From Candidatus Saccharimonadota bacterium (lineage in GTDB: Bacteria; Patescibacteriota; Saccharimonadia; Saccharimonadales; Saccharimonadaceae), in the NCBI GenBank assembly GCA_028289015.1, contig JAQGHC010000031.1:1-64000 (forward strand): 64,000 bases of DNA, read 5' to 3'. How positions within the stretch are numbered: position 1 is the first letter of the stretch; each line of letters starts with the position of its first letter. Made by a program: the position numbers and the translations under genes. The notes under the pieces are model-generated. The model searched no databases. It was not told the origin of the DNA and worked only from the letters and a program-made list of their open reading frames with translations. Shown here in pieces: positions 15,231 to 60,487 of this stretch.

Positions 15231-16442
15231 ATGAGAATTCTATCACGCAAATCAACCATTCCCTACAGCATCATCGCGACAGTTTTCTGTGCGTTTGTTA
15301 TGACTTTGGGTGTTATTTTAGCAAATCGTGCTCACGCGGCATCTGTGGCTGATATCGCGACGGGTGAACATTTAATTACACTGCACGATGGCGGTCGTGA
15401 CCGCGGCATCCTCTCGAGCGCAACGACACTTCGCCAGGCCTTCAAAGAGGCTGGCATTCAAATTGACCCGGATGACATGGTAGAACCAAGTCTGGATGAG
15501 ACGCTCATCGCAAGCCATTATGACGTGAATGTTTACCGCGCTCGGCCCGTCACTGTAGTGGATGGTGCGTTGCGCACAAAAATTCTATCGCCTTATCAGA
15601 CGCCTGAACAGATCGTAGATCATGCTGCCATTCAGCTTCAGGACGAAGATATAACGATTGTCAGTGCAAATACGGATATGGTCAGTCAAGGTGCTGGCCT
15701 GCAGGTGACGATTGATCGCGCTACGCCTTTTACCTTTGTGTTGTACGGCAAAAGAGTAACCGCGTATACGCAAGGTCTGACTGTCGGTGAAATGTTGACG
15801 CAAAAAGGGGTTAAACTTGCGCAGAATGACATGTTATCAACGCCTAAATCAACTCCAGTTACCGCTGGTATGACTGTCGAATTATGGCGTGAGGGTAAGC
15901 AGACAATAACCGAAGAGGCTGACGTCGCGTTCGAAACTGAAAAAATTCAAGACGCTGACCGTGATTTGGGCTACAAAGACATTAAAACTCCCGGCGTAGC
16001 TGGAAAGCGAACAGTGAGCTACGAGATTGAAATGAAAAACGGCGTTGAAATCAGCCGTAAAGAGATTCAAAGTGTTACGACAAAAGAACCTGTCAAACAG
16101 GTTGAAGTTGTCGGTGCTAAATTGCCAACGCCAATGAATCCCACCGAAGCGCAGACGCTTGGTCGTCAGATGATGCTCGACTATGGATTTGGCGAGGATC
16201 AATGGCCGTGTCTATATAATCTGTGGATGCGCGAATCTGGATGGAAGACGACTGCGGGCAACCAAAGCTCTGGAGCATATGGCATTCCGCAAGCCTTACC
16301 GGCAAGCAAAATGGCCTCAGTCGGTCCGGACTACCTCACGAATGCAGCAACGCAAATTACTTGGGGCCTTGGGTATGTCAAGGGCCGATACAACACGCCG
16401 TGTGGCGCGTGGAGTAGTTTCCAGGCAAAGGGCTGGTACTAG
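15231..16442 (+). CDS. Rpf/YabE-like secreted cell-wall hydrolase (DUF348 + G5 + lysozyme/transglycosylase-like C-terminus)
   Basis: N-terminal TM/signal, DUF348-like repeats, G5-like module (VSYEIEMKNGVEISRKEIQSVTTKEPVKQVEVVG), C-terminal LWMRESGWKTTAGNQSSGAYGIPQALPASKMA. Confidence 0.88.
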   Translation: MRILSRKSTIPYSIIATVFCAFVMTLGVILANRAHAASVADIATGEHLITLHDGGRDRGILSSATTLRQAFKEAGIQIDPDDMVEPSLDETLIASHYDVNVYRARPVTVVDGALRTKILSPYQTPEQIVDHAAIQLQDEDITIVSANTDMVSQGAGLQVTIDRATPFTFVLYGKRVTAYTQGLTVGEMLTQKGVKLAQNDMLSTPKSTPVTAGMTVELWREGKQTITEEADVAFETEKIQDADRDLGYKDIKTPGVAGKRTVSYEIEMKNGVEISRKEIQSVTTKEPVKQVEVVGAKLPTPMNPTEAQTLGRQMMLDYGFGEDQWPCLYNLWMRESGWKTTAGNQSSGAYGIPQALPASKMASVGPDYLTNAATQITWGLGYVKGRYNTPCGAWSSFQAKGWY

Positions 16443-30981: not shown

Positions 30982-31225
30982 GCGCATTTGTGAATTAACT
31001 TACTACGTATCGGCAGTAGTCGAATCCACGGAAAAGTCTGATACATAAATGAGCCTACCGACAAATGTCGCACGGATACCGAAACAACTTTTTATCTAAT
31101 ATCAATTAATTCTAAGGTCGACAGTGTATCCCGTTCTATTTGCGAGAAGTAAGACAGAGTAAGGTAGACGCCTTTGCAGTAATGCAGACGGCAGGAGAAC
31201 GATTATTCGTAATCATCAATCCGCT
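30982..31225 (+). promoter_or_regulatory. Long (~240 nt) 5' leader of the LysM-CHAP gene; possible riboswitch
   Basis: Non-coding stretch between a consensus promoter and the hydrolase ORF with conserved-looking segments such as CGAATCCACGGAAAAG; class not established. Confidence 0.4.
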
Positions 31226-32428
31226 ATGGCTTTGGCCCAAGCGAAAACTGCTCAGTTGAAGCAAACAGTGTTTGCAGGTGATACTTTTAATACTAAACGA
31301 ATTAAAGGCGGTCCGAAATCAACTGCTATTGCAGCGTATTCTGGTGTATTCTTGCTAGTCATGTCGATGGTCGCCATCGGCTATCAGCCCCCACAAAAAG
31401 TAGATAGCGTTGCTAGCGCCGTCAATACTGTCGCAGCGACTAGTGCTATATCTGCAGACCAGCCGTCAGTCGATGAGATTGTTGCGACAAATGTCGCTGC
31501 AGGTATCGCATCGCGCGCTAATTTGCCTATCGCAAATGAGATTGCCAACCAGTCAGTGTCACTATCAATTCAAAGTCAATTAGCACAAAATGACACCAAT
31601 ACCATCACAAAACCTCAGATTGTTGAATTATCTGCCGGTAATCGAACTATCAAAGAGTACGTCGTCAAGGAAGGCGAGACTGTTGAGAGTATCGCCGCAC
31701 AAAAGAGCATCACGCCTGATACTATCAAGTGGGCGAACGGCTTGTCTGGCAGTGCGATCCCTGCGGGCAAGGTGTTAACTATCCTTCCTGTCGACGGCGT
31801 CTACTACACCGTAAAAGCAGGCGATACGGTTGAAAGTATCGCGGCAAAATACAATGTTTCACCCCAGAGTATTACGACTCATAACGATCTTGAGCTAACT
31901 GGCCTCGCTAACGGCGTCAAAATAGTCCTACCAGGCGGTACGATGCCTGCGAATGAACGTCCAGGATATCAGGCTCCACAGGTGGCACGCGTCTTTACGA
32001 GCAACGCTTATAGTAATAATAGCTTTCGTTATGCTGGTGGGTTTGCTGGCGGTGATGTCTTTAATATTCGTCGCAATGTCAAAAGTACAACCCCCGGTAA
32101 TACGAATGCATGGGGTAACTGTACGTGGTATGCGTGGGAGCGTCGATCTGAAATGGGCCGACCACTACCATCTGGCGCTTTAGGCAATGCTGCGCAGTGG
32201 AATACGTCGCTAGGTGCAATGGGTTATCGTGTCGACTCAGTGCCTCAAGTCGGGGCTATCTTCCAAAATGGTGGCGGCTACGGCCACGTCGGTATCGTAG
32301 AAGGTTTCCAGGCTGATGGATCAGTGATCGTGAGTGAGATGAATAACTACTCAGGCGGCGGGTACAATGGTATTAATGACCGTATCATTCCTGTCAATCA
32401 AATTGGTATGTTTAACTACATCCATTAA
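31226..32428 (+). CDS. Secreted peptidoglycan hydrolase with two LysM motifs and a CHAP domain
   Basis: EYVVKEGETVESIAAQKSITPDTIKWANGL and YTVKAGDTVESIAAKYNVSPQSITTHNDL; CHAP: NAWGNCTWYAWERR...GHVGIVEGFQADGSVIVSEMNNY. Confidence 0.92.
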   Translation: MALAQAKTAQLKQTVFAGDTFNTKRIKGGPKSTAIAAYSGVFLLVMSMVAIGYQPPQKVDSVASAVNTVAATSAISADQPSVDEIVATNVAAGIASRANLPIANEIANQSVSLSIQSQLAQNDTNTITKPQIVELSAGNRTIKEYVVKEGETVESIAAQKSITPDTIKWANGLSGSAIPAGKVLTILPVDGVYYTVKAGDTVESIAAKYNVSPQSITTHNDLELTGLANGVKIVLPGGTMPANERPGYQAPQVARVFTSNAYSNNSFRYAGGFAGGDVFNIRRNVKSTTPGNTNAWGNCTWYAWERRSEMGRPLPSGALGNAAQWNTSLGAMGYRVDSVPQVGAIFQNGGGYGHVGIVEGFQADGSVIVSEMNNYSGGGYNGINDRIIPVNQIGMFNYIH

Positions 32429-45645: not shown

Positions 45646-47427
45646 CTACTTTTCGATAAAGCCGCCACTTTGATGCGACCAGAGATTGGCGTAGATGCCT
45701 TTTTGCTCCAACAGTTCAGCATGTGTGCCATTCTCAGTAATCGTACCTTGCTCCAGAACAATAATACGATCCAGCTTTGCGATCGTAGAAAGCCGGTGTG
45801 CGATAACGATTGAGGTTCGGTTCTTCATCAATTTTTCTAAGGCATCTTGAATTAATTTTTCACTCTCACTATCGAGTGCGCTCGTGGCTTCGTCTAGGAT
45901 AAGAATCGGCGCATCTTTCAGGATTGCTCGAGCGATAGCAATACGCTGGCGCTGGCCGCCTGATAATTTGACGCCCCGTTCTCCAACGATTGTATCTAGT
46001 CCTTCAGGTAATGTTTCGATAAACTGCAGTGCATTCGCCTGTTTGACTGCTATCATGATTTCACCATCGCTTGCATCGGGCTTGCCGTAGGCAATGTTAT
46101 CGCGGAGACTCCTATGGAATAGATATGGTTCTTGTGGGACGTAAGCAATGTTTGCACGCAGTGATTGCTGAGATATGTCTCGGATGTCTTTCCCGTCGAT
46201 AGTGACTGTACCTTTGCTAACGTCAGCAAATCGTAGAATTAATTTCGTCAGTGTTGTTTTTCCGCCGCCACTATAACCAGCTAGGCCAATGCGCTCACCA
46301 GCTTGAATCTCCACAGATAGATCATTGATGACGGCCTGTGTGTTACCTGGATATTCAAAGGACACGTTCTCTAGCCGAACAGCACCCTCATGAATAGCGA
46401 GCGTTTGCGCATGCTTTTTGTCTTTTACTTCTGGTGTGATACTTAAGACTTCTGTAATATCGGCAGCGTCGAGGAATGCCTGTTCGACGCCGCGAATGAT
46501 TGGTGAAATGTCAAAGAGGGAACCAGTAAGGCGACCAAAGTATGTGACGGCAAAAATCAGCCCAGCAATGGATATACCATCGGTTGTATAGAGCCATATA
46601 CAAAAAGCCATTGTAATAATCTGAAAAGCAAACAATGTACTTTGACGAAGCTGACCTTCCTTCTCGATGACGTCGATTTCCTGCTGGACAACTTTTTCAA
46701 TGTCATGCCGACCTTGGGTGACGTGGTGAATTTCACGCTGCTCAGTCGCAAAAGCTCGGACGATCTGCTGATTGCCGATAATATCAGCAATAAGACCATT
46801 AAGCTTTGAAGTCATTAGTTTACGTCGGTGACGAATTGGTCCGCGTTTGCCAGTGCCTACGACGCTCCTCCATATTAATACGCCAGTCACCAGCGTGAGG
46901 GGAAGAAGGAGAATCGGTGAAAGAATGGCTATGACGATGAGGCTCGTAACATAGTTCACGATCAAGCCACTCGCCTGCAGATACACTACATCCATAATTG
47001 AAATGATAGAATGTGCAAACTTTGATACATCGCCCGCAAGTGAGCCAACTTTGTGATTGGCGAAGAACTGTTCGCTATGACTAGATAGGGATAGCATTGC
47101 GCGTTCAAGTAATGTCGTCTGGATATGCTCTTCATGATAGAAGAGTCGACGGAAGCCGATTGTCGAAGTAATGACGGAGGCGACGGAAATGATAGCGGCA
47201 ATCAACAGGAGGGTTGAGGCGTGCTGCCAATTATGAGGCTCTGTTATGAGCGACTGGATGATAAGGCTAAATAGCAGCGGCAGGGCGACGATGTACAGGA
47301 AGCGGTTGAGCAGAATGAGAATAGTGTATAAAAAAAATAATTTTTTATTTTTGCGAATCTCTTGCCAATAGATAGCAAGTGTTTTTCGCGCGATCTTAGG
47401 GTCGGTTCGGTTTAGTAGTTTTGGCAT
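45646..47427 (-). CDS. ABC exporter (fused permease/ATPase)
   Basis: Six-TM-like N-terminus; GERIGLAGYSGGGKTTLTKLILRF, VKLSGGQRQRIAIARAILKDAPILILDEATSALDSESE, SIVIAHRLSTI. Confidence 0.96.
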   Translation of the reverse strand: MPKLLNRTDPKIARKTLAIYWQEIRKNKKLFFLYTILILLNRFLYIVALPLLFSLIIQSLITEPHNWQHASTLLLIAAIISVASVITSTIGFRRLFYHEEHIQTTLLERAMLSLSSHSEQFFANHKVGSLAGDVSKFAHSIISIMDVVYLQASGLIVNYVTSLIVIAILSPILLLPLTLVTGVLIWRSVVGTGKRGPIRHRRKLMTSKLNGLIADIIGNQQIVRAFATEQREIHHVTQGRHDIEKVVQQEIDVIEKEGQLRQSTLFAFQIITMAFCIWLYTTDGISIAGLIFAVTYFGRLTGSLFDISPIIRGVEQAFLDAADITEVLSITPEVKDKKHAQTLAIHEGAVRLENVSFEYPGNTQAVINDLSVEIQAGERIGLAGYSGGGKTTLTKLILRFADVSKGTVTIDGKDIRDISQQSLRANIAYVPQEPYLFHRSLRDNIAYGKPDASDGEIMIAVKQANALQFIETLPEGLDTIVGERGVKLSGGQRQRIAIARAILKDAPILILDEATSALDSESEKLIQDALEKLMKNRTSIVIAHRLSTIAKLDRIIVLEQGTITENGTHAELLEQKGIYANLWSHQSGGFIEK

Positions 47428-47567: not shown

Positions 47568-48479
47568 ATGCAAAAGATTTTACTTTATTACAAATTCACT
47601 CCGATCAGCGATCCTGCGACGATGAAACTATGGCAAAAGACCCTTTGCGATAGTCTTAATTTAAAAGGTCGTATTTTGATTTCACCTCATGGTATTAATG
47701 GTACGGTCGGCGGTAATATGGATGATCTAAAAGCCTATATTAAGGCAACGAAAGAGTTTGCTGGATTCAAAAAAATTGTCTTCAAATGGAGCGATGGTGG
47801 GCGCGAAAACTTCCCTCGCATGAGTGTCAAAGCGCGCCGCGAGCTTGTTGGGTTTCAGAATAGCGAAAATGAGTTTGACGTTGACGAGAGCGGCGTAATT
47901 GGCGGCGGCATTCATCTTAAGCCGCGTCAGGTGCATGAACTTATTGAAAAGTATGGTGATGATGTCGTATTTTTTGATGGACGTAACGAGCACGAAGCGA
48001 AAATTGGCAAGTTCAAAGATGCGGTTGTGCCAAATACGAATACGTCGCGTGATTTTATTGCCGAACTTGAGAGTGATAAGTATGATGACATCAAAAATAA
48101 AAAAGTCATTACTTATTGTACTGGCGGTATTCGCTGCGAAGTTATTAGCGCTATGATGAAAAAGCGTGGATTTAAGGATGTCTACCAGATCGATGGTGGA
48201 ATCGTAAAATACGGCGAAACATACGGTGACGACGGCCTTTGGGAAGGCAGTTTGCGCGTGTTTGACGACCGCATGACCGTTGATTTTAGTGATCACGCTA
48301 AGGTAATAGGTGAATGTACTCACTGTGGTGGTCCGACGAATAACTATGAGAACTGCGCGTGGGCGAACTGTAACGACCTAGTATTGATCTGCCTGCACTG
48401 CAAGCAGAATCCGGATCTGTTATTTCATACCGAAGCTTGCCGAGAAAAAGCTAAGATCACGGCAATGGCAAACGCATAA
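47568..48479 (+). CDS. trhO: tRNA uridine(34) hydroxylase TrhO/YceA-like rhodanese protein
   Basis: LLYYKFTPISDP, LKGRILISPHGINGTVGG, RNEHEAKIGKFKDAVVPNTNTSRDF, ITYCTGGIRCEVISAMMKKRGFKDVYQIDGGIVKY, Cys-rich C-terminus. Confidence 0.93.
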   Translation: MQKILLYYKFTPISDPATMKLWQKTLCDSLNLKGRILISPHGINGTVGGNMDDLKAYIKATKEFAGFKKIVFKWSDGGRENFPRMSVKARRELVGFQNSENEFDVDESGVIGGGIHLKPRQVHELIEKYGDDVVFFDGRNEHEAKIGKFKDAVVPNTNTSRDFIAELESDKYDDIKNKKVITYCTGGIRCEVISAMMKKRGFKDVYQIDGGIVKYGETYGDDGLWEGSLRVFDDRMTVDFSDHAKVIGECTHCGGPTNNYENCAWANCNDLVLICLHCKQNPDLLFHTEACREKAKITAMANA

Positions 48480-48554: not shown

Positions 48555-48583
48555 TTGACATCTAGCGTTAATGAGTATATTAT
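48555..48583 (+). promoter_or_regulatory. Consensus sigma70-like promoter TTGACA-17-TATTAT
   Basis: TTGACA 48555-48560, 17-bp spacer, TATTAT 48578-48583. Confidence 0.8.
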
Positions 48584-48616
48584 CACTACAAATGTAAGTT
48601 GGTTGGGTGTTGTTGA

Positions 48617-48654
48617 ACGGGTGGATGCGCGAATAGTGCGCCCACTCGTTTTTG
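48617..48654 (+). terminator. Early terminator/attenuator-like hairpin about 30 nt after the predicted TSS
   Basis: ACGGGTGG-atGCGC-gaatagt-GCGC-CCACTCGT-TTTTG (8-bp outer stem with one G.U, 4-bp inner stem, U-tract). Confidence 0.75.
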
Positions 48655-48738
48655 TTATCCCTGAATAACCACTAGGATGACGGCTCGTTTACGGGCAAAT
48701 TCCACAACTCCGACCTTCTTTCAATATAAGGAGACAAC

Positions 48739-48789
48739 ATGTTGCCGATGATAGCTGGAGCGATAGTAAATAAAGGTGTGCGAGTATGA
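48739..48789 (+). CDS. 16-aa leader peptide MLPMIAGAIVNKGVRV
   Basis: SD AAGGAG 5 nt before ATG 48739; stop TGA 48787-48789 overlaps the ATG (48786) of the next gene as ATGA. Confidence 0.55.
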   Translation: MLPMIAGAIVNKGVRV

Positions 48790-49811
48790 AAAATCATAAT
48801 GAACGATCTTTCAATTCATCAACTGAATACGTAGAAAAACGAAGGCTGAGTACGTTGACTAAGAGAGTTGGCTTGGTGGCGCTAGCTGGCACACTTGCTA
48901 CTAGTGGCGCTCTAGGTGCAGTAAGTGCATTCAACAGCTATAACGTAGTAGAGACTAAAAGCACAGCCCAAAGCGGTAAGGCTGAAATTATTGAATTCGA
49001 TGCTGATTATGAGGCGCATTGCTGGACGGCAACCAAGATTCAAGTCACTGGGTCGGGCACTAAAGATGAGACTATGGCTGTGGGTGTCAGCTTGGGCTGG
49101 CAAACTTCGATGGTAGATGCGTTGTATAAACAGACACTTTGCGTAGATTCCACCAAGGTCAATTACGAAGTTAATCAAGCGACCGGTGAAGTTGGTATAA
49201 ATATTCCCAATAAAGACGTCATTAGTACCCAGACTGATATTATTTTAGCACTAAAGGAAGGTCAGGGTATTAGGCCTTATGGGGATCAAACACCGGGATA
49301 TGTAATCGGTGAAAGTTTGACGAAAATGAGTGAAGCTCTCCCGATCATCGAATATTTCCCTAATACTCTTAAGAATGTAGACGAACAAGACAAAAACGCT
49401 AGTTTACGGCTAAATATGGGCCTAATTCTCGGTGCAAAAGCGGCTAAAGAGCAGTGTCAGAAAGAAACATGGGCATTAGCTGCAAAGCCGTTTGAGAATG
49501 GCGTCAAGCGGATGGTTAGTGTGGGGTTGTCAGTGGCACAAGCGATGCGTCCCGATGCTAATATTGATCCAACGAAAGTGAGTGTCACAGTCGAAGGAAA
49601 GCCGATTGACAAGCTTGATGCTCCGGGTGATAAATCCAACATTGATGACGCAATCAAGCAGATAGAAGAATATGCTAGCTCAAACAAGAACTTTACGCTA
49701 TTACCTCCAGAAATGAGTGGATGCGAAGTTTCTGAAGAGGTCAAGAAGCTACCTACCCAGAGTGAGTCGAAGACGAAAATTGTTAATCAAGAGTATGCAC
49801 GACATGAATAA
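48786..49811 (+). CDS. Secreted/membrane hypothetical protein, first gene of the five-gene operon
   Basis: N-terminal TM (RVGLVALAGTLATSGALGAVSAF) with a soluble ectodomain; SD AAAGGTG. Confidence 0.85.
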   Translation: MKNHNERSFNSSTEYVEKRRLSTLTKRVGLVALAGTLATSGALGAVSAFNSYNVVETKSTAQSGKAEIIEFDADYEAHCWTATKIQVTGSGTKDETMAVGVSLGWQTSMVDALYKQTLCVDSTKVNYEVNQATGEVGINIPNKDVISTQTDIILALKEGQGIRPYGDQTPGYVIGESLTKMSEALPIIEYFPNTLKNVDEQDKNASLRLNMGLILGAKAAKEQCQKETWALAAKPFENGVKRMVSVGLSVAQAMRPDANIDPTKVSVTVEGKPIDKLDAPGDKSNIDDAIKQIEEYASSNKNFTLLPPEMSGCEVSEEVKKLPTQSESKTKIVNQEYARHE

Positions 49812-50208
49812 TTACAATCTACCTCCACAGTGGCAGACATTCGAAAAGGTAACGATTGGTGACAGGGATTACGTACGTGATCTTACGACGGAAATATCAG
49901 TTCCTTTTGATATTTCAAATCCATCTCACGCGGCACTTCTCGCTCCAGCAGCCGAGCCTGAGTCAGGGACATGGCAAGATGTGCACTCCAGCAAGGGAAA
50001 TAAGCGTTCGTATACGCTCGGTTCTCGTGTTGCAATGGGCAGCTTCGCAATAGGAATGCTATTGACACCTTTTGCTTATAAGGCTGCTGGAAAATCGGCA
50101 TACGATGTAATGAATGCGATTAATCCATTAGAAGATAAAGTATTAGAGCAGACTACAGTTTGGGAGGATGTTATGAGTACCTTTAATGGCAGTGAGGAGA
50201 AGAAATAA
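49795..50208 (+). CDS. Small single-TM hypothetical protein, second operon gene
   Basis: MHDMNNYNLPPQWQTFEKV...GSRVAMGSFAIGMLLTPFAYKAAGKSAYDVMN; overlaps flanking genes. Start set to 49795 (ORF track 49717). Confidence 0.75.
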   Translation: MHDMNNYNLPPQWQTFEKVTIGDRDYVRDLTTEISVPFDISNPSHAALLAPAAEPESGTWQDVHSSKGNKRSYTLGSRVAMGSFAIGMLLTPFAYKAAGKSAYDVMNAINPLEDKVLEQTTVWEDVMSTFNGSEEKK

Positions 50209-51797
50209 TGAATATTCGACGAAATAAATACAATCCTGAGAATCGAAATGGTGATCGAATGCCACCCGCAGATGCGCGGGCATTTAAGGAAGAGAACGGA
50301 CAAATATATAAAAGAGTGGGTGTCGACTTCGGTCCGGGCTATACATATGTTCCAGTAGATACTCCTGTAGCAGATGCGCCCGTACAGCTGCCTTCAGCGG
50401 CCCTACGAATGGAAGATCGTTTCCGCGCTGCCCTTGCCGCTTCGCAAATCACAACAGAGCGTACAGCTGATATTCAGCCTTCGAGCGCTGATAAAGCAGA
50501 AACATTACAGCGAGCATTGCGGGCGCAGGAAGGTCTTCGTCAACATATCGTACAGGAGCTTGCCGATATACAAGAAGCGAATGCAAGAGAAGAAATGGAT
50601 AGGGTAAGAGAAGAAATGGACACGCAAAATGCACTTGATCAAGAAGCATTAAAATACGTTGTGACTACGGGTGGCGTAGTAGGTATACCGAAGATGCCGT
50701 TACCTGCACATAACTCGCAGATAAATACTTCCACGGTTGCTCATAGTTCGGAGCGTAAAAGCGTGGAAGCGCAAGATAAACCGACGCGCGCACGAATGAA
50801 TCGTAAAGTAAGCGCACGGGTTCTCGTAGCTTCCGGTGTTCTTGTTGTTGGAGCAGGTGCGGCCGCTGCTGTCGTCGTACCTAATGACTTAACTGCGGCA
50901 TTTTTGGGAAAGAATGATACGCAAGGTAATGACGAAGCGAAAGAAATGCTCCCTTTGCCAACAGCGGCATTGGTTGATTCTTTTGCTGGATGTTTAGATG
51001 ATAATGGCGCAGGCCCATCGTTAATCGACCTACCCGTTACTTCGCAAATCGAGGTAGGATATTCGTATACTGGATCTAAAAATACTCCAAAAATACTTGA
51101 AACAAGTTTTTACGATGATAATAATAAGCTGATTAAAGCAAACGCCAAGCCGGTTATTGTTACCTCCAACGCACCCGCAAAAGTCGCTGCATGTATACCA
51201 GAAGCGGATCGTGTGACTGCTGTCACTGCCGAAGGTAGCAAGGTGACAGTTGATTTGTCGAAAATTTCAACTCAGTTATATCAGGATGTCAATGTCGGTG
51301 AAATTGCACGTGGCTTTGCTGTTTCTAATACGGTGGCGAATCCATTGACTGACCTTTACCCATTAGCTGAAGTGATCAACGGCATCGTAGAGGAAAGTAA
51401 AGCACGGCCAGATACCGATGAAAAAATGACCCCTGAAATTGCAGCCGGTATACAGCGAAATTATGACGACAAGAGTAATGTCGTCGCCGAAATACGCCAG
51501 GCTCAAGTCAAAACTGTACAGGCTCTCATTCGTCCTGGTGGTGGATATGCGGAAAAAATCAAAGCGTTTGTTAAAGAGCGTATAGTGGAAAAAATCAAAG
51601 CGAGGGCCGCGGAATTAAAACAGCAAGGTTTGACGGATGTTGAGTCGCCAAGTGTTGTCTTTGTGTCTGAGGCAGAAAACCTTGAAGAAAAAAATCCTGA
51701 ACCCCCACAAGTGGACAGCTTTAAATTAGCTGATGCGGTGAAAATTACTAGCTTTCCTAATACATTAAATTCTGCCATACCAGAGGCGAAAAAATAA
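50208..51797 (+). CDS. Membrane-anchored hypothetical protein with coiled-coil N-terminus and an ectodomain, third operon gene
   Basis: TM ARVLVASGVLVVGAGAAAAVVV; ectodomain layout resembles gene 1 (beta segment then long helical segment). Confidence 0.85.
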   Translation: MNIRRNKYNPENRNGDRMPPADARAFKEENGQIYKRVGVDFGPGYTYVPVDTPVADAPVQLPSAALRMEDRFRAALAASQITTERTADIQPSSADKAETLQRALRAQEGLRQHIVQELADIQEANAREEMDRVREEMDTQNALDQEALKYVVTTGGVVGIPKMPLPAHNSQINTSTVAHSSERKSVEAQDKPTRARMNRKVSARVLVASGVLVVGAGAAAAVVVPNDLTAAFLGKNDTQGNDEAKEMLPLPTAALVDSFAGCLDDNGAGPSLIDLPVTSQIEVGYSYTGSKNTPKILETSFYDDNNKLIKANAKPVIVTSNAPAKVAACIPEADRVTAVTAEGSKVTVDLSKISTQLYQDVNVGEIARGFAVSNTVANPLTDLYPLAEVINGIVEESKARPDTDEKMTPEIAAGIQRNYDDKSNVVAEIRQAQVKTVQALIRPGGGYAEKIKAFVKERIVEKIKARAAELKQQGLTDVESPSVVFVSEAENLEEKNPEPPQVDSFKLADAVKITSFPNTLNSAIPEAKK

Positions 51798-51811
51798 GAC
51801 TTGAGATCAAT

Positions 51812-52630
51812 ATGTCTGAACAATCACCTAGCACTCCTTTCGAATCCTTCGTCGTCCCCACGCCTGAAGAGTTGTCTGAATTTGGCGTGCGTTTAGAACA
51901 AGCGGTGGCGGCCCATCAGCCAGAGGGGGGTGTAGAGGGGGATCGCAATGAGTTGAAGGAGGATTATGAGGCTGCAAGCGCGGACCATGCAAAAAAACGG
52001 GCAGAGATAGTGGCTGCGCAGGCTAGTATCAATGAGGTGCAAGAAGAAATAGTAGACATCATAGACAGTATGAGTAACGATGATGCAATGATCCCCGAAG
52101 ATGAACCATCGGCAGCTGAAATGATTCGCACTCGGACGGATATACTGTATGGTCGTTTACGTAAAAGTAAACAAAAAAAAGCGCATCTAGTACAGACTAT
52201 CAAAATCCTGCAGCAGGAAATGGACGCCATAAGTGCATACAAAGACCGTAATCGACAAGCTGAGCAACATTTAGTGGACAGGGGGGTGACACTAAGACAA
52301 GAGTTGAGTCGTCTTGCTTTAGTGATGAGCGCCATAGGCAATCTTGGAGAGCTGAAGCCTACCTTACCTCGTTATGCTGATAGGTATCATTACTTCCCGG
52401 CAGAGAGCGATAATGGTTTGGATGATTTTATCAATATAGGAGCAGAACCTGGAGAACGGTATACGACGGTATCGCTTCCTGTGCCCTTTGTCGTGCCAGT
52501 TATGGCGGCCGACGAATTAGCCGTTGTGCCACAAGAGGCCCCTATTAGACCCGTCCTCCCTCCCGTGCAAATTTCACCCAAGACGCAAAAAAAGTTTTTA
52601 AAGCCAATAACGAATATGAACAGAAGATAA
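51812..52630 (+). CDS. Cytoplasmic coiled-coil protein, fourth operon gene
   Basis: 272-aa ORF with a long heptad-rich region AASADHAKKRAEIVAAQASINEVQEEIVDIIDS. Confidence 0.8.
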   Translation: MSEQSPSTPFESFVVPTPEELSEFGVRLEQAVAAHQPEGGVEGDRNELKEDYEAASADHAKKRAEIVAAQASINEVQEEIVDIIDSMSNDDAMIPEDEPSAAEMIRTRTDILYGRLRKSKQKKAHLVQTIKILQQEMDAISAYKDRNRQAEQHLVDRGVTLRQELSRLALVMSAIGNLGELKPTLPRYADRYHYFPAESDNGLDDFINIGAEPGERYTTVSLPVPFVVPVMAADELAVVPQEAPIRPVLPPVQISPKTQKKFLKPITNMNRR

Positions 52631-52643
52631 GGTAGAGTATATT

Positions 52644-55406
52644 ATGGAACGAGCAGTAAAAAGACAGTCACCATTCGATATCAATCTGACACCGGAGAAT
52701 ATTGATGGTTATGTGGATACATTTTTGAGTCAGGTTACTCCAGAGTGTCTTATTGGTACGGCGGATGAGCGTACCGCGTTCACTGCAATATTATCGGGTT
52801 TTAAGGGTAATATCCGTAATCAGGTTTCTAGGTTTCAGGCGGATACGACGCTAAGAAAAATAGATGAAGCGGTTGCCGCAAAGCATTACGAACAAGTGCA
52901 ACACGTCCTTGATTCTGGCGCAGTGACGGAGGATTTTATCGCTACCATTCGCGAAGTTCCAGTACTTTTTAGCCCGGTGCAAAAAAACATCGACATGCTT
53001 CGCGCAAAAGCGCTCGAGGATCAATGTCAGGCGCGCACTGCAAACACAAAATCATCCGCCACACTCCGCGAGACAGCGAAACATTCGGCACAAGTAGCGG
53101 CGGCTTACGCAGCTGATACCCCGGTATTAAAGCGTGGCCCAAAAACATTGATTGGCGAGCAGTACAATCTTTTAAAGCTTAGTGAGGCACGACAAAGTAT
53201 GCCTAAAAATGATCCAGCACGAAAAGACATTGACGGCATCGTCAGTGATGCATATGGAGAAAACTATGCCTTAAAAGAGACGAGCGCCACGGCTGAGCGC
53301 GTTCGTCAGGTGTTCGCTACATTCGCTACAGCGGCGGTGTTAACTACCGTCGCCAATCCCGCAGCGTATGCAAGCGAGACCAAAACTTCCCAAGTAATTC
53401 CTAACGAGACGAAGCCTGATGAGCGTGTCATCACCATTAATGACAAAGTTCGCATACCCGTTCCTGTAAATCAAATAGTAAGTATTGAAGAAAAAAACGT
53501 AAACACCTCTTCACTGGACGATAGTAGAAGTAGTTCGAGTCAAATAGCCCAGGAAAAGCAAGAAAAATCTCAGGTGGTACCAAAGAAACCTGAAAAAAAT
53601 CCTCTAAGCGCAAATGAACAAGTTGATGAAGTCAAAACAAAGTCGCAGGAATCACCTAATAAGAGTGAAGAGAAAACCAGTGATCGTAAGGCCGATGCGT
53701 TAGTCTTCCGGATACCACGCTCCGCCGCTAGTGACAAGCAGGCCAACAAGGTGAGCGACGATCTTGATTTACGTTTACCAGATACTTCACTTGAGGAAGA
53801 TAAATTACACGAAACTCCACTCCACGATACACTGGTCGGTAGGACAACTAATGCAGAGGGCGAAAAAGCGTATATAAATACAGATAATGAGAAGCGGTCG
53901 ACTGAAAGACGCGAGGCTGAAGAAGGAGAAAATAAACCAGCCGTCAATAAGGCCGGAGAAAAAAATCGTGACGCATCAGCATCAAACGATCGTGCAGAGA
54001 GTGTTTTAGCGTCTCGTGATAAAAAAGCGGCCATACCTCAAGCGCAAATTGAAGGTATATTGGACGAACCTAAGCTTATTTTTAAAATACCACGCGAAAA
54101 GAAGTCTCTGAGTGAAGAGAAGCCTATCCAAATCACACTTGACGAGACTGACGAGAGTTTCCGTTTTTCGTTGAAAAAAGGTCAAAAAAGTACCGGTGTA
54201 AAACCAATTGAACTACCTGACGGGTTAGAGATCGTTCCAATCCCTACTGTTCCTATTCCTGCACCAGAAGCACCTGCGCCTGCAATCGAACAGGCGCCTG
54301 TGAGCGAAACTGACTTCGTTCAAGCAGCACAAAAAATGATAGAGCGCGGCGGCGTTTGGGAGCGACGCGGGATAGCCATGAAGTTCTTTATTGAAGATCC
54401 CGAACTTGCCTGCACGCCATCTCAAGCGGCAGGAATCGTCGGCAACTTACTGGGCGAGTCTGGTCCTGAAATGAATCCAGGACAGAATCAATTCGGTGGC
54501 CCAGCATTTGGTATTGTGCAGTGGGAGGCTTCACGCCTTCAAGACCTTAAGGAATTTGCAAAAGAGAACCTAACAGATTTCAAGACCCAACTTAATTTCA
54601 TGAAGCATGAGTTACTCGGAAAGGAGCGCAGCGCATTTGCCGCTATCAAGACCGCAACAAATCGCAAAGACGCTGCGCTGATTGTGCGTGAACGATACGA
54701 GCGACCAAGGGTGCACCGTGATCAAGAGCGAATAGACTATGCCAATGAAGTAGGTGACGCATTCAACAAAGAATACCAGGCTGTACAGGCAGCTAAATTA
54801 CCTGCAAAATCTGAAACAACAAGCCCGGATAACATCCTTGTCGGATGGCCAACAACGGGCGAAGAAGCCATGGAGCTATTTAATCAGTGCGACTCACGCT
54901 GGGGGAATATCCTTAGTCCGAATGGACTCAAGGCGTGCTTGAATGCGTGTGGTCCGACGAATATCGCCATGGCGGTGCAGCTATTAAAGCCCGATCTTGA
55001 TGTTACGCCAAAAGAAACGATTGAATATGCGAATGCAAACAAACTGTGGTTTACGCCAGAAAGAGGTGCGCCAGATTCTGGCGGAGTTACGTATGACGGA
55101 ATGCTTCAACTTGCAAAGAATTGGGGTGTGAATGGCAATAAGATGGGCCCGAACTCATTGAAAGATTTCGAGGCCTACAAGAAGATACTTGAAGATGGTG
55201 GGGTAATTATTGCGGCAGGCACTGGCCCGGCACCGTTTGTGATGCCAAAAGATGGTGCGCATTTCGTCACGATTCGTGGAATTACGAAGGATGGAAAATT
55301 CTTGGTTGCAGATCCGTATCCAAAGACGCCTGATACAAATACTGTCGCGTGGGATGCGCAACAAATTATGAATAGCACATTCGGCGCAGTTGTTTTATAC
55401 AAGTAG
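52644..55406 (+). CDS. Large protein with phage-tail lysozyme-like (Phage_lysozyme2) and C39-like peptidase domains, fifth operon gene
   Basis: SQAAGIVGNLLGESGPEMNPGQNQFGGPAFGIVQWEASRLQDLKEFA (lysozyme-like) and NACGPTNIAMAVQLL...GGVIIAAGTG...GAHFVTIRGITKDGKFLVADPYP (C39-like); TM-like VRQVFATFATAAVLTTVANPAAYA about 220 aa in. Confidence 0.85.
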   Translation: MERAVKRQSPFDINLTPENIDGYVDTFLSQVTPECLIGTADERTAFTAILSGFKGNIRNQVSRFQADTTLRKIDEAVAAKHYEQVQHVLDSGAVTEDFIATIREVPVLFSPVQKNIDMLRAKALEDQCQARTANTKSSATLRETAKHSAQVAAAYAADTPVLKRGPKTLIGEQYNLLKLSEARQSMPKNDPARKDIDGIVSDAYGENYALKETSATAERVRQVFATFATAAVLTTVANPAAYASETKTSQVIPNETKPDERVITINDKVRIPVPVNQIVSIEEKNVNTSSLDDSRSSSSQIAQEKQEKSQVVPKKPEKNPLSANEQVDEVKTKSQESPNKSEEKTSDRKADALVFRIPRSAASDKQANKVSDDLDLRLPDTSLEEDKLHETPLHDTLVGRTTNAEGEKAYINTDNEKRSTERREAEEGENKPAVNKAGEKNRDASASNDRAESVLASRDKKAAIPQAQIEGILDEPKLIFKIPREKKSLSEEKPIQITLDETDESFRFSLKKGQKSTGVKPIELPDGLEIVPIPTVPIPAPEAPAPAIEQAPVSETDFVQAAQKMIERGGVWERRGIAMKFFIEDPELACTPSQAAGIVGNLLGESGPEMNPGQNQFGGPAFGIVQWEASRLQDLKEFAKENLTDFKTQLNFMKHELLGKERSAFAAIKTATNRKDAALIVRERYERPRVHRDQERIDYANEVGDAFNKEYQAVQAAKLPAKSETTSPDNILVGWPTTGEEAMELFNQCDSRWGNILSPNGLKACLNACGPTNIAMAVQLLKPDLDVTPKETIEYANANKLWFTPERGAPDSGGVTYDGMLQLAKNWGVNGNKMGPNSLKDFEAYKKILEDGGVIIAAGTGPAPFVMPKDGAHFVTIRGITKDGKFLVADPYPKTPDTNTVAWDAQQIMNSTFGAVVLYK

Positions 55407-55460: not shown

Positions 55461-55508
55461 GCTGGCGCTCCACTCAACGTTTCGTTGAATAGAGCGCCAG
55501 CTTTGTTT
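55461..55508. terminator. Long hairpin between convergent genes
   Basis: GCTGGCGCTC-...TCAACG-ttt-CGTTGA...-GAGCGCCAGC-TTTGTTTT. Confidence 0.88.
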
Positions 55509-55521
55509 TCGGTGTAAAAGG

Positions 55522-57045
55522 TTACGAAGCGGGGTTCAGCATTTCTCTGAGCTCCCGTTTCGCTACCGTTGAAGCAACCTCTTCGATCTGCGCTTGTAGG
55601 CCTGGTGTCGTATCTGCGCCTTCAAGGGCGCGGATGAGCCGCTTGATGAGTAGATTTTCTGCGGTAGCAGGCGTCGCCTTTACCAGGGTAGATGGCTCGT
55701 CACGTTCTCTCAACCGACGGTTGACGTGATATTTTTTCTGCTCCAGAGTCGGAACTTCTTGCTTGAAGCAATCCACCAAAATGCGTGCATATGCGACAAG
55801 TGTCTCAAGGCCCGTTTCTTCCGGTAGAACAGATGCCGGCTTGCCATCACGAATCCATTGACTGAATGGAACCATGTAGATTTTTTTGCCGGTAAATTCC
55901 TTTCGCTCCTCGTCGTAGTCGAATCCAAGGTCACGCAACAGCTGGGTGGGGTCATCCGTCCAGTATGGCGGCTTCTTTTCTTTAGTTTTGTGGTCAATCT
56001 GTGCTGCAACCAGTTCGGTTGCGACTGAATGGAATCTTTGAAGAAATTTTCCTACTGTATTGCCTTCATGGGTTCCATTGATGACGACGAATGAGTGTTT
56101 TTGAAGCTTGTCGATGTGATTAAGTTGGTAAAGATTGATCATTGTCGACAATAGCGTATTGAACGTGGCCATGTCGTCTGCAACTGCAGGGAACAGCACG
56201 ACATCAGCTTCAAGGAACAGCCCCTCGTTAGCTGCGTGGCTATTGCCATTACCGGTATCACCAAAGCAGTTGCGGTATTTTGGCCGCAACGTTTGATGCA
56301 TCGACAAGAACTCCTCCATCGTGAACTTGTTGTTTGTCGTATTCGGATCAGAAAGTAGCGCGTAGACGCTCGTCTGCTTGTGCTTGCCGAGGTTTTCGCA
56401 TGCCGTCTCATGATCGATGATCAGGTCATGATCAGCAAGAACGTCGTTTAGGAGCGATTGCTCGCTTCTGCGCAAATCCAGCCGCAAATTAACCGTTCCG
56501 TCATTCTCATTACCTTCGAGTAAGAGATTGGCGACCGTTGCAAGCCATGAATGCAAGACGGCCAAGTTTGTGATGAGCGGTGTTTTGCCGGCACCACCCT
56601 TGGACGCCATGACGACAATCGTGCGTTTCATTCCTTTCAAAAGTTGCAGAATGTACGCGAGCTCCGCGTATGCCACTTCCAGCTCGATTTGCCTTTGTAG
56701 CTTCGCTTGCTCAGGCCTGAAAAGGACATCGTTAGCGCTAGTTGGATTGAACAGGTGTACTATTCTTTGAGCCACGCTCTTAACGGTTGCCGCAACGTCT
56801 TCAGGTCCTTCGTCCCGACTTTCGTCAAAACTATATAGTTCTAAGCTATCGTTGCGGAGCGCCTTAAGTGCATCCTCAACACCATTAACTAGCCGCAGGA
56901 CATGTGCCCGCTCAGACACCACTTTCGCAGTCTGGTCAACTTCACCATCACCCAGTGATGGTGCCCTGCTTGGCTTTTCCGGAGGAGAAAATGCCTGTTT
57001 TTCGGGGTATTCACGCTGGGTGAGTTCAACCACATTTTGCGACAT
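55522..57045 (-). CDS. ParA/MinD-like P-loop ATPase with long N- and C-terminal extensions
   Basis: RTIVVMASKGGAGKTPLITNLAVL deviant Walker A; later ADVVLFPAVADDMATFNTLLSTM and SFVVINGTHEGN resemble ParA switch regions. Confidence 0.75.
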   Translation of the reverse strand: MSQNVVELTQREYPEKQAFSPPEKPSRAPSLGDGEVDQTAKVVSERAHVLRLVNGVEDALKALRNDSLELYSFDESRDEGPEDVAATVKSVAQRIVHLFNPTSANDVLFRPEQAKLQRQIELEVAYAELAYILQLLKGMKRTIVVMASKGGAGKTPLITNLAVLHSWLATVANLLLEGNENDGTVNLRLDLRRSEQSLLNDVLADHDLIIDHETACENLGKHKQTSVYALLSDPNTTNNKFTMEEFLSMHQTLRPKYRNCFGDTGNGNSHAANEGLFLEADVVLFPAVADDMATFNTLLSTMINLYQLNHIDKLQKHSFVVINGTHEGNTVGKFLQRFHSVATELVAAQIDHKTKEKKPPYWTDDPTQLLRDLGFDYDEERKEFTGKKIYMVPFSQWIRDGKPASVLPEETGLETLVAYARILVDCFKQEVPTLEQKKYHVNRRLRERDEPSTLVKATPATAENLLIKRLIRALEGADTTPGLQAQIEEVASTVAKRELREMLNPAS

Positions 57046-57304
57046 TTTGAAGCCTTTCATGTGTATGGACGATGGGAATCTTATTCATTACACCGAATTG
57101 TTAATGTGCGTCTCACCTGACGCTCAAACTCGGTTCTAGAATGAAGCGAGCGAATGACAGGGAGTCTGTTTTCGCTGTTTGTTTGATGCTGATTATAGCA
57201 TTTTAATGCATATTTAACAATAGATTTGCCTAATTGTATAGCAAATTGCCTTGCGTAAATATTGTGATGATAAAACAGACATAACCACGTATAATATAGA
57301 GTGA

Positions 57305-58783
57305 ATGAATGCGAAACTCGAAACAAAATTAAAAACACTGCCACGGTCCTCCGGAGTGTACTTTCATAAGTCGGTGAGCGGTGAAATTATATATGTCGGC
57401 AAAGCGGCGGTTTTGAAAAATCGGGTTCGTCAGTATTTTCAAAGTACGCGTGATATGGATGTGAAAACCAGAGCACTCGTTGCTGAAATTGATGATACGG
57501 ACTGGATAGAAACAGAAAGTGAAATCGACGCGCTCTTTCTGGAATCTGAAATGGTCAAGCGCTATATGCCGCGCTATAACATTCTACTGCGAGACGACAA
57601 GTCGCAGACATTTGTGCGCATCGATATGAAGAGCGAGTGGCCGTATGTCTGTTTTACGCGTAATCCGGCCGATGACGATGCGGAATATTTCGGACCGTAC
57701 TATAACGGGTTTGCCGTCAAGAAGGCCCTGCGGTACCTGCGTAAGACGTTTCCGTACTACACCAAGCCGCGTACGACAGGTAGACCGGATTTGGATGCCC
57801 ACTTGGGACTGAGTCCGTCGGCGACGACGACATCTGAGCAGTATCGTAATAGTCTGCGCAATCTTATTCGCTATCTCAAAGGCGAACGGGTGGCATTGGT
57901 GAGAGAAATCGAGCGTGATATGAAAACGGCCGCAGGGCTGCAGGATTTTGAAATGGCGGTACTGTACCGCAACCGGCTCAATAACCTCCGTGAATTACAG
58001 CGTAGGATTATGTTCGGCGACAAAGAATTTTTAGATATCAGCAAAGACAAAGCGCTTAGTGACCTACGCGACTTGTTAGGTCTGAAAAAGTTACCAGCAC
58101 GCATCGAGGGTTACGATATTTCGCATATGAGCGGAACGAATGTGGTTGCTAGTATGGTCGTGTTCAGTAACGGGGCGAGCGATAGAGCAAACTACCGCAA
58201 ATTCAAGACGCGCATTGAACATAACAATGATTTTTATAACATGCACGAAACACTGACACGGCGGTTGAGCGAAAAAAACATTAAAGCCTGGGGGTGTCCA
58301 GATTTGATGTTGATTGACGGTGGTAAAGGGCAATTAGATGCAGCGCTACAGGCGCGTGACGAACGTGAGCAGACCAAAATTCCATTTATCGGCCTTGCAA
58401 AACGCGAAGAGCAGATCGTTATCCATCATCAAAAATCGGGTGTTATTTTAAACAAAGATAAATTAAGAGAATTAGACGGCTACGTGACGGTAACAGAAGA
58501 TTTCACACTCGTAAACCTACCGCATAGTACACATATAATCAAGTTGTTGCAGCGCATCCGTGACGAATCACATCGCTTTGCCGTTAGCTATCATACGGTA
58601 TTAAAGCGTCAAAAACAGACGGCAAGCGCCCTTGAAGACATACCTGGTATCGGCCCAACTACCCGAAAAAAGCTGATCAAGACTTTTGGTAGTTTGCGCG
58701 GCGTACAGGCCGCGACACCAGAGCAGCTAATTGTCGCGATCGGACCCGCTAAAGCGAAGATTTTAACGCAGTACCTGCCTTAG
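57305..58783 (+). CDS. uvrC: UvrABC system protein C (short, Fe-S cysteines absent)
   Basis: LPRSSGVYFHKSVSGEIIYVGKAAVLKNRVRQYF, EIDALFLESEMVKRYMPRYNILLRDDKS, YDISHMSGTNVVASMVVF, DLMLIDGGKGQLDAAL, HhH DIPGIGPTTRKKLIKTFGSLRGVQAATPEQL. Confidence 0.96.
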   Translation: MNAKLETKLKTLPRSSGVYFHKSVSGEIIYVGKAAVLKNRVRQYFQSTRDMDVKTRALVAEIDDTDWIETESEIDALFLESEMVKRYMPRYNILLRDDKSQTFVRIDMKSEWPYVCFTRNPADDDAEYFGPYYNGFAVKKALRYLRKTFPYYTKPRTTGRPDLDAHLGLSPSATTTSEQYRNSLRNLIRYLKGERVALVREIERDMKTAAGLQDFEMAVLYRNRLNNLRELQRRIMFGDKEFLDISKDKALSDLRDLLGLKKLPARIEGYDISHMSGTNVVASMVVFSNGASDRANYRKFKTRIEHNNDFYNMHETLTRRLSEKNIKAWGCPDLMLIDGGKGQLDAALQARDEREQTKIPFIGLAKREEQIVIHHQKSGVILNKDKLRELDGYVTVTEDFTLVNLPHSTHIIKLLQRIRDESHRFAVSYHTVLKRQKQTASALEDIPGIGPTTRKKLIKTFGSLRGVQAATPEQLIVAIGPAKAKILTQYLP

Positions 58784-58951: not shown

Positions 58952-60487
58952 ATGAGCCACGGTGGCAAGTTGCGTTCCAGTCTAGGATTTACGCTTGTAG
59001 AGCTTAGCGCGGTTATTTTTATTATTAGCATTTTGGCAACTATTGTTATTTTTAGTATTGGCTCTTGGCGAGAAAAGGTCGCTACTAGTGAAGTACTTAG
59101 TGATTTGAACGGCGTAAAAGCAGCTATGGAGAATGCGCGTAACTTCGGTGATGCGTATCCTAGTACCTTGCCTTCTGGATTTTCTAAAAGTAAGAATGTT
59201 GACGTGACGCTATATGCTAGCAGCCCTACGTATTATTGTGTCGATGCATCCAGTAAGGTAAAAACATCAATAAAATATTTCATCGATGTTGATGTAAATG
59301 GAAAAGTCAGAGAGCCAATGCGGGGTGGATGTGCGACTGGCGAAGCAATTGCAGGTGGGGCCGTTGCTGGCTGGAGTGATATTTCGCTTTCGTCAGGCAA
59401 TGTTTGCGGCGTTATTGATAGCCGTGCTTACTGTGACGGCGTTAATACGTATGGCGAGGTAGGTGATAACACAACCACAGACCGTAATAGTCTGACTCCT
59501 GTTAACGTGACGGGCGTACTAAGTGGTAAAAAAGTGACAGATATCGCTGTCGGTCTGGATCATGGGTGCGCACTAAGTGAAGGTAAAGTTTATTGTTGGG
59601 GGCGAAACACATACGGCGAACTGGGTAATGGGAATAATACGAATAGCTTATATCCGGTTGCGGTTAGTGCGACTGGTGTTTTAGCGGGCAAGACGGTCAC
59701 GGCAATTTCTGCCGGTGGTCACCATACTTGTGCGATTGCAACTAGCCTTATCTATTGCTGGGGGCTTAACGCAAGCGGCCAATTAGGTGATAGTACGACG
59801 ACCCACTCGAACATCCCTGTTGCAGTGATTGCATCCGGCGCGCTCTCAGGTAAAACGATTACAGCGGTCAGTGGCGGTGATTTACACACCTGCGCTATTG
59901 GATCTGGGGCTGCTTATTGTTGGGGTTCAAATTCTGGCGGTCAGGTTGGTGACGATACGGTTGTTCAAAAAACTGCACCAACCGCAGTTACCGCAACTGG
60001 CGTCCTGTCGGGTAAAAATATTGATACGATCAGTGCGGGGGGCGCTCATACCTGCGCTGCAGCAACGGGCCTTGCTTATTGTTGGGGTGATAATACGTAT
60101 GGTCAATTGGGTGATAATACGGTTGTTCAAAAGCTAGTACCGACTGCCGTTCACACGGCAAGTGGACTTAGTGGCAAAACCGTGACGAAAATTGACACGA
60201 ACTTGTATCACACCTGCGCGCTTGCTAGCGGTGTTGCCTATTGTTGGGGGCGGAACCATTATGGTCAGATGGGCGATAATACGGTTGTTCAAAAATCAGT
60301 CCCAACAGAGGTATATGCCGGGGGTGCGTTAAGCGGTAAAGCGATGACGGACATTAAAGTCGGCGCACTTACGTCTTGTGCGATAACCACCACGAATGCA
60401 TATTGTTGGGGATATGGCGGCTACGGGCAGTTGAATAATGGTGGAACGGCAAATAGTAGTGTGCCCGTTGTGTCGACAAATCCATAA
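58952..60487 (+). CDS. Type IV prepilin-like N-terminus fused to RCC1-repeat beta-propeller
   Basis: SSLGFTLVELSAVIFIISILATIVIFSI class-III-signal-like segment followed by repeated HTCA...YCWG.N.YGQLGDNT units. Confidence 0.93.
   Translation: MSHGGKLRSSLGFTLVELSAVIFIISILATIVIFSIGSWREKVATSEVLSDLNGVKAAMENARNFGDAYPSTLPSGFSKSKNVDVTLYASSPTYYCVDASSKVKTSIKYFIDVDVNGKVREPMRGGCATGEAIAGGAVAGWSDISLSSGNVCGVIDSRAYCDGVNTYGEVGDNTTTDRNSLTPVNVTGVLSGKKVTDIAVGLDHGCALSEGKVYCWGRNTYGELGNGNNTNSLYPVAVSATGVLAGKTVTAISAGGHHTCAIATSLIYCWGLNASGQLGDSTTTHSNIPVAVIASGALSGKTITAVSGGDLHTCAIGSGAAYCWGSNSGGQVGDDTVVQKTAPTAVTATGVLSGKNIDTISAGGAHTCAAATGLAYCWGDNTYGQLGDNTVVQKLVPTAVHTASGLSGKTVTKIDTNLYHTCALASGVAYCWGRNHYGQMGDNTVVQKSVPTEVYAGGALSGKAMTDIKVGALTSCAITTTNAYCWGYGGYGQLNNGGTANSSVPVVSTNP

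What the first reader, a model, noticed from the sequence alone, without database searches (positions are those of the whole stretch)
48555..55406. Five-gene surface/cell-wall-attack operon with lysozyme + C39-like terminal gene and no recognised relatives for the other four genes
Seen: genes at 48786, 49795, 50208, 51812 and 52644 are co-directional, overlapping or within 15 nt of each other, and end at a strong hairpin (55461-55508). Three of the first four carry a single TM; the fourth is a coiled coil. The fifth carries phage-tail-lysozyme-like and C39-like domains after a long low-complexity linker. Established: Phage_lysozyme2-type domains cut peptidoglycan, and C39 domains are papain-like peptidases often linked to peptide export or processing. 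Inference: this could be an envelope-spanning, peptidoglycan-penetrating or effector-delivery apparatus, for example for host attachment by an epibiont. It is the best candidate in the window for an undescribed system.
Basis: partly seen in the sequence, partly recalled or inferred. Interest (0 to 1): 0.85.

Follow-up and report, generated by a model that had tools for sequence, protein, structure and literature searches.

The report
Saccharibacterial swappable wall-hydrolase surface operon
A tiny parasitic-type bacterium carries a rare, very fast-changing set of surface genes whose last protein holds two cell-wall-cutting domains that are exchanged for other wall cutters in related species, so it may be a tuneable tool for getting through a partner bacterium's wall.

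Summary
The five-gene observation is right. The genes are co-directional and nearly touching. They start at a good promoter (48555-48583) and end at a strong terminator (55461-55509). Genes 1, 2, 3 and also 5 have one membrane segment each (N-in, C-out); gene 4 is a soluble coiled coil. Gene 5 carries Phage_lysozyme2 and C39 domains with the expected catalytic residues in place. The unit is wider than reported: a convergent ParA-like ATPase (55522-57060) belongs with it.

The block fills the trhO-uvrC interval. I found it in only four genomes: this one, JJ.18, JJ.33 and RYN_419 (profile hits in 4 of 396 family genomes). Same-genus G002 and G004 lack it there. Order and topology persist while protein identity falls to 22-37% (TrhO 78-91%). 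The terminal enzymes are swapped: lysozyme+C39; lysozyme and C39 on two proteins; M23. The genome has a separate T4SS-linked lysozyme+C39 paralogue. P6 relatives elsewhere sit in T4SS-like loci.

Best reading: an accessory, VirB1-like peptidoglycan-hydrolase presentation module, probably for opening a wall at host contact; this is not shown. 'Effector-delivery apparatus' is unsupported: no channel or secretion ATPase is in the block. Novelty: new variant of a known kind; genes 1-4 have no recognised family.

The parts
48555..48583 (+). promoter (TTGACA-17 nt-TATTAT)
   Evidence: 11 of 12 consensus matches; conserved in JJ.18
48584..48785 (+). roughly 200-nt 5' untranslated leader, possibly structured
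   Evidence: folding z -2.5 in the window and -2.1 in JJ.18; 69% identical to JJ.18 against 61 +/- 4% for shuffles; no Rfam family
48739..48789 (+). 16-codon ORF MLPMIAGAIVNKGVRV* with a good Shine-Dalgarno; its stop overlaps the gene-1 ATG (ATGA)
   Evidence: read from sequence; the JJ.18 gene-1 start lies near this position in the alignment
48786..49811 (+). P1: 341 aa, single hydrophobic segment (28-46), Cys-containing ectodomain; no known family
49795..50208 (+). P2: 137 aa, short N-terminal part, one weakly hydrophobic segment (79-97), short exterior tail; no known family
50208..51797 (+). P3: 529 aa, helical N-terminal half, one hydrophobic segment (206-224), ectodomain; no known family
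51812..52630 (+). P4: 272 aa soluble coiled-coil protein, no signal or clear membrane segment
52644..55406 (+). P5: 920 aa; N-terminal domain 1-222, hydrophobic segment 223-241 plus AYA motif, roughly 340-aa charged/Pro linker, lysozyme and C39 domains
54411..54764 (+). Phage_lysozyme2 domain of P5 (residues 590-707; candidate catalytic Glu605)
   Evidence: Pfam E 7.6e-24; alignment
54876..55319 (+). Peptidase_C39_2 domain of P5 (residues 745-892; Cys769, His873, Asp890)
   Evidence: Pfam E 1.1e-7; alignment with JJ.33 and the T4SS paralogue
55461..55509 (+). intrinsic terminator hairpin plus T-tract between the convergent P5 and P6
   Evidence: -27.8 kcal/mol, z -5.6
55522..57060 (-). P6: 512 aa ParA/MinD-like ATPase, convergent, kept with the block in JJ.33 and probably JJ.18
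47568..48479 (+). left flank trhO (rhodanese-type tRNA hydroxylase), not part of the block
57305..58783 (+). right flank uvrC, not part of the block

Best explanation
The block is an accessory, rapidly evolving envelope module that presents swappable peptidoglycan hydrolases outside the cell. P1, P2, P3 and P5 are inserted N-in/C-out with one membrane segment each. Their N-terminal parts, together with the coiled-coil P4 and possibly the ParA-like P6, form a cytoplasmic side that would gather or place the complex, while P1 and P3 give exterior domains. P5 holds its lysozyme and C39 domains on a long linker; an A-x-A motif after its membrane segment may let signal peptidase release the exterior half. 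The two domains would cut glycan strands and peptide bridges and open a local gap in a wall. Because the genome has a separate T4SS-linked enzyme of the same domain pair, and related genomes exchange the enzyme type at this locus, the most likely target is a partner (host) cell's wall at the contact site: a VirB1-like job, tuned to the host. Shown: operon layout, topology pattern, domain content with catalytic residues in place, syntenic recurrence, enzyme swapping, P6 similarity to T4SS-locus ParA. Inferred: complex formation, exterior placement, processing, target and purpose.
For: Locus recurrence: trhO-[block]-ParA-uvrC is complete in JJ.33 (L068; gene lengths 563/338/178/542/181/764/423 aa), and seen as far as the contigs reach in JJ.18 and RYN_419. 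Enzyme swap: window lysozyme+C39 on one protein; JJ.33 C39 (563 aa) and lysozyme (764 aa) on two proteins with the same layout and similar linker motifs; RYN_419 M23 E 2.4e-10; JJ.18 M23 E 2e-19. One positively preceded hydrophobic segment in each of P1, P2, P3 and P5 across genomes. Catalytic residues E605, C769, H873, D890 align. Paralogue P0023 with lysozyme+C39 follows the genome's own T4SS-like operon. A study of Patescibacteria T4SS reports that VirB4-adjacent peptidase and lysozyme homologues are essential for epibiotic growth of Ca. S. epibionticum (PMC12102498). P6 shares KGGxxKTP, NExxG and DxGN motifs with ParA proteins inside T4SS-like loci of other Saccharibacteria (L061-L064) and a conjugative Paenarthrobacter plasmid; such loci also carry wall hydrolases (NlpC/P60+M23, CHAP). 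A pilin-propeller gene, similar in kind to the host-binding PilX2, lies directly after uvrC.
Against: No experiment. The block occurs in 4 of 396 family genomes, so it is not a core requirement for epibiosis. P2, P4 and the P5 N-terminal domain show no significant sequence match to their positional counterparts; their equivalence rests on order, length and topology. Fast divergence is not special to the block: the T4SS-linked VirB6-like protein and hydrolase are also about 32% identical between G000 and G004 while the VirB4-like ATPase is 92%. Structure models of P1 and P3 were too poor to use (pLDDT 48 and 35). The enzymes could act on the cell's own wall. JJ.18 is a mixed assembly with three trhO fragments, so its two block contigs may come from different strains.
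Confidence: 0.5

Rival explanations
1. Self-directed wall remodelling: P4/P6 position the membrane proteins at pole or septum and the hydrolases open the cell's own peptidoglycan for growth, division or pilus assembly.
For: ParA/MinD-like ATPase and a coiled-coil partner resemble placement systems in general; lysozyme and M23 domains are common in own-wall enzymes.
Against: Absent from same-genus G002 and G004 at the locus and from nearly all family genomes, unusual for a division function; enzyme types are swapped between close relatives.
Confidence: 0.22
2. A remnant or offshoot of a conjugation-type T4SS locus: ParA and the VirB1-like enzyme were kept, the channel genes lost or replaced by P1-P4.
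For: P6 relatives head T4SS-like operons that carry wall hydrolases; in G075 such an operon adjoins uvrC as P6 does here.
Against: P1-P4 show no match to T4SS components; the hydrolase domain trees are unresolved; order is maintained across four genomes, unlike a decaying remnant.
Confidence: 0.15
3. Exported wall lysins used against competitors (bacteriocin-like) rather than for host penetration, with P1-P4 giving export or self-protection.
For: A constant N-terminal layout with exchanged C-terminal enzymes resembles polymorphic-toxin layouts; the A-x-A motif after the hydrophobic segment suggests possible release.
Against: No immunity gene recognised; four co-encoded membrane and coiled-coil proteins are more than a secreted lysin needs.
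Confidence: 0.1

Closest known systems
VirB1-type two-domain peptidoglycan hydrolases of monoderm T4SS (TraG of pIP501, PrgK of pCF10, TrsG/CD419)
   Same: Two wall-cutting domains in one exported protein encoded in a multi-gene envelope operon; glycosidase plus peptidase logic.
   Different: Different domain families (Phage_lysozyme2 + C39, not SLT + CHAP); a 220-aa N-terminal domain before the membrane segment; no VirB4/VirB6 in the operon.
Saccharibacterial T4SS-linked lysozyme/C39 protein (own genome P0023, contig C12)
   Same: Same domain pair, 36% identity over 289 residues.
   Different: Ordinary N-terminal signal (residues 7-25), no N-terminal domain; follows a T4SS-like operon; such lysozyme proteins are found in many family genomes with a variable second domain.
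Actinobacterial conjugative plasmid T4SS locus with ParA (Paenarthrobacter ureafaciens NZ_CP101182: CHAP protein, ParA, DUF6668, SCO6880, DUF87, TraM)
   Same: ParA of the same motif set beside a wall hydrolase and membrane proteins.
   Different: The window block lacks the SCO6880, VirB4-like and coupling proteins and has P1-P4 instead; P6 is convergent.
Phage tail-lysozyme (PF18013) of tape-measure proteins
   Same: The lysozyme domain matches PHROG tail tape-measure families (E 3e-14).
   Different: No phage structural genes around; no relative of P5 in IMG/VR by pattern scan.

Membership tests
T4SS VirB1-like peptidoglycan hydrolase | tandem glycosidase and peptidase wall-hydrolase domains with catalytic residues | tested here: met
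   Phage_lysozyme2 and C39_2 with E605, C769, H873, D890; biochemical activity not tested
T4SS VirB1-like peptidoglycan hydrolase | encoded with VirB4/VirB6/VirB3-type genes | tested here: not met
   none among P1-P6; the genome's T4SS-like operon is on contig C12 with its own hydrolase
T4SS VirB1-like peptidoglycan hydrolase | needed for assembly or transfer by a T4SS | not testable with these tools
   needs genetics
T4SS-locus ParA subfamily | deviant Walker A KGGxxKTP, NExxG and DxGN motifs | tested here: met
   met by window P6; JJ.33 P6 keeps KGGxxKT and DTGN but not KTP or NExxG
T4SS-locus ParA subfamily | located in a T4SS locus | tested here: not met
   only P1-P5 and uvrC adjoin it here
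Complete secretion system (T4SS/T7SS-like) | channel or polytopic membrane protein plus secretion ATPase in the locus | tested here: not met
   only single-segment proteins and a ParA-like ATPase
Known anti-phage defence system | match to PADLOC models | tested here: not met
   no hits for P1-P6
Prophage or phage tail cassette | phage structural neighbours | tested here: not met
   neighbours are housekeeping genes; only the lysozyme and M23 domains resemble phage proteins
C39 bacteriocin-processing exporter | C39 domain fused to an ABC transporter | tested here: not met
   C39 sits C-terminal in P5; the ABC gene at 45646 is separate, on the opposite strand and without C39

The most novel reading that the evidence does not exclude
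P1-P6 form a previously undescribed, self-contained contact machine of Saccharibacteria: ParA-placed, membrane-anchored complexes whose exterior hydrolase head is exchanged between species to match the host's wall, working beside the propeller pilin and the T4SS.
Probability: 0.2. Interest if true: 0.85.

Novelty: new variant of a known kind. Interest (0 to 1): 0.58.

Why it matters
How ultrasmall epibionts get through the thick wall of a host is open. A locus where the wall-cutting head is swapped while order and topology are kept offers a direct way to ask whether wall chemistry sets host range, and four of its proteins have no recognised family.

Tried and rejected
AlphaFold of P1 (3 rows) and P3 (4 rows): pLDDT 48 and 35; Foldseek of P1 against PDB gave no match better than E 0.2; not used. 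A suspected kinship of the P1 and P3 ectodomains (DUF4230-like pattern, from memory) was not supported: z 0.8, no Pfam hit. Profile search of PDB sequences for P1/P3: nothing credible. Viral contigs: no relative of P5 or P6; the P3 alignment was too variable to scan. Domain trees of lysozyme and C39 were unresolved, so the origin of the P5 domains is open. Defence-system and phage-cassette readings rejected. The idea that extreme divergence is unique to this block was rejected after the T4SS control. A transglycosylase-like region before M23 in RYN_419 P5 has no Pfam or PDB support and is only a guess. The names VirB4/VirB6/PrgI-like for genes in L028-L041 and L061-L064 rest on context, size and membrane segments; NCBIfam did not name those tested from L061-L063.
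Full report
What is there. Five + strand ORFs (P1 48786-49811, P2 49795-50208, P3 50208-51797, P4 51812-52630, P5 52644-55406) overlap or lie within 14 nt of each other. They follow an 11/12 promoter at 48555-48583 and end at a hairpin with a T-tract (z -5.6). On the other strand a ParA-like gene, P6 (55522-57060), converges on the same terminator. P5 has Phage_lysozyme2 (E 7.6e-24) and Peptidase_C39_2 (E 1.1e-7); P1-P4 match nothing above curated cut-offs in Pfam or NCBIfam; P1, P3 and P4 have no informative PHROGs match and P1-P4 none in PADLOC.

Topology. A hydropathy scan gives one hydrophobic segment each, preceded by several K/R, in P1 (28-46), P2 (79-97), P3 (206-224) and P5 (223-241), and the same in their positional counterparts; P4 has no clear membrane segment and is coiled-coil-like. 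In all four P5-type proteins (window, RYN_419 and two in JJ.33) the segment is followed by an Ala-rich stretch that can be read as a signal-peptidase motif (AYA-SE, SHA-AE, SVA-AE, AAA-AP). The candidate catalytic residues E605, C769, H873 and D890 align with relatives, except that the JJ.33 C39 protein has Asn in place of the Asp.

Neighbourhood in relatives. The block fills the interval between trhO and uvrC. In the same genus, G002 and G004 have the two flanks without the block. RYN_419 (G001) has trhO, then P3-like 419 aa, P4-like 341 aa and P5-like 696+ aa ending in an M23 peptidase at the contig end; it has no P1 or P2 there. JJ.18 (G003) has trhO, then P1-, P2- and P3-like genes to the contig end, and on another contig an M23-bearing protein convergent with a P6-like gene. 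A scan of 85,488 species genomes with TrhO gave 80 loci; one more, JJ.33 (G082, another genus of the family), holds the whole block: trhO, 563 aa (C39), 338, 178, 542, 181, 764 aa (lysozyme), convergent ParA 423 aa, uvrC. The second lysozyme copy in the JJ.33 764-aa protein lacks the Glu and looks inactive. Profile searches of 396 Saccharimonadaceae genomes found P3 only in these four genomes and P1 in three. Elsewhere the interval carries unrelated genes, so it looks like a variable spot.

How sure is the equivalence of genes? Significant matches: P3 window-JJ.18 (E 4e-6 among 1202 proteins), P6 window-JJ.33 (7e-5), P6 window-JJ.18 (4e-39) and the catalytic domains. P1 of JJ.33 and JJ.18 are mutual best hits with E about 0.05. 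P2, P4 and the P5 N-terminal domain do not match by sequence. Their equivalence is an inference from order, length and topology.

Rate. Against JJ.33, TrhO is 82% and the UvrC N-terminus 84% identical, while P1-P6 are 22-29%. The control tempers this: in the T4SS-like operon of G000 and G004 the VirB4-like ATPase is 92% identical, but the VirB6-like protein and the hydrolase are 32%. Exposed parts of Saccharibacterial machines seem to diverge fast in general. What sets the block apart is that its cytoplasmic proteins (P4, P6) diverge as well.

T4SS links. The genome carries a lysozyme+C39 paralogue (442 aa) with a normal signal sequence at the end of a PrgI/VirB4/VirB6-like operon beside recF, dnaN and dnaA. 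The counterpart in JJ.33 is 42% identical and lies in the same setting; RYN_419 has the start of one. So the block is additional to that machinery. A study of Patescibacteria T4SS notes that VirB4-adjacent peptidase and lysozyme homologues are essential for epibiotic growth of Ca. Southlakia epibionticum (PMC12102498). P6 relatives elsewhere sit in T4SS-like loci: four Saccharibacterial genomes and a conjugative Paenarthrobacter plasmid, with shared KGGxxKTP, NExxG and DxGN motifs. A Rhodococcus plasmid hit has no such context in its flanks, so the link is not universal.

Mechanism. The most likely reading is an anchored or released pair of wall hydrolases on a long linker, held with P1-P3 in the membrane and organised from inside by P4 and perhaps P6, opening peptidoglycan at a contact site. 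That the wall is the host's is inferred from the swap of enzyme types between relatives, from the presence of a second, T4SS-linked enzyme, and from the neighbouring propeller pilin; it is not shown. Own-wall remodelling is the main rival.

Verdict. Observation confirmed and enlarged; interpretation partly supported (surface and wall attack yes, delivery apparatus no). It is a new variant of a known kind, with four unassigned protein families and a modest chance of being something new.

Noticed in passing
58952-60487: Pilin-type N-terminus (N_methyl, just under cut-off) fused to RCC1 propeller repeats, in kind like PilX2, the propeller minor pilin that aids host binding in N. lyticus (PMC12206443). 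The same slot after uvrC holds pilins with fn3 and phage tail-collar domains in L069.
   Followed up: partly
31053-31197: lysM-TM7 RNA (RF03005, 112 bits) just upstream of a LysM+CHAP gene at 31226-32428.
   Followed up: no
15231-16442: Secreted DUF348/G5 protein overlapping ksgA; relatives in L021, L022 and L039 carry a C-terminal lysozyme domain, the window copy shows no Pfam hit there.
   Followed up: partly
L061:1288-3747: Terminal gene of a T4SS-like locus fuses NlpC/P60 (below cut-off), an endonuclease/exonuclease/phosphatase domain and M23: a nuclease joined to wall hydrolases.
   Followed up: no
48584-48785: Leader upstream of P1 is structured (z -2.5) and partly conserved in JJ.18; CCTTCTTT lies just before AAGGAG and may cover the ribosome site.
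   Followed up: partly
L028 and L029: T4SS-like operon of G000 and G004: VirB4-like ATPase 92% identical but VirB6-like protein and hydrolase 32%, a strong inside/outside contrast in rate.
   Followed up: partly
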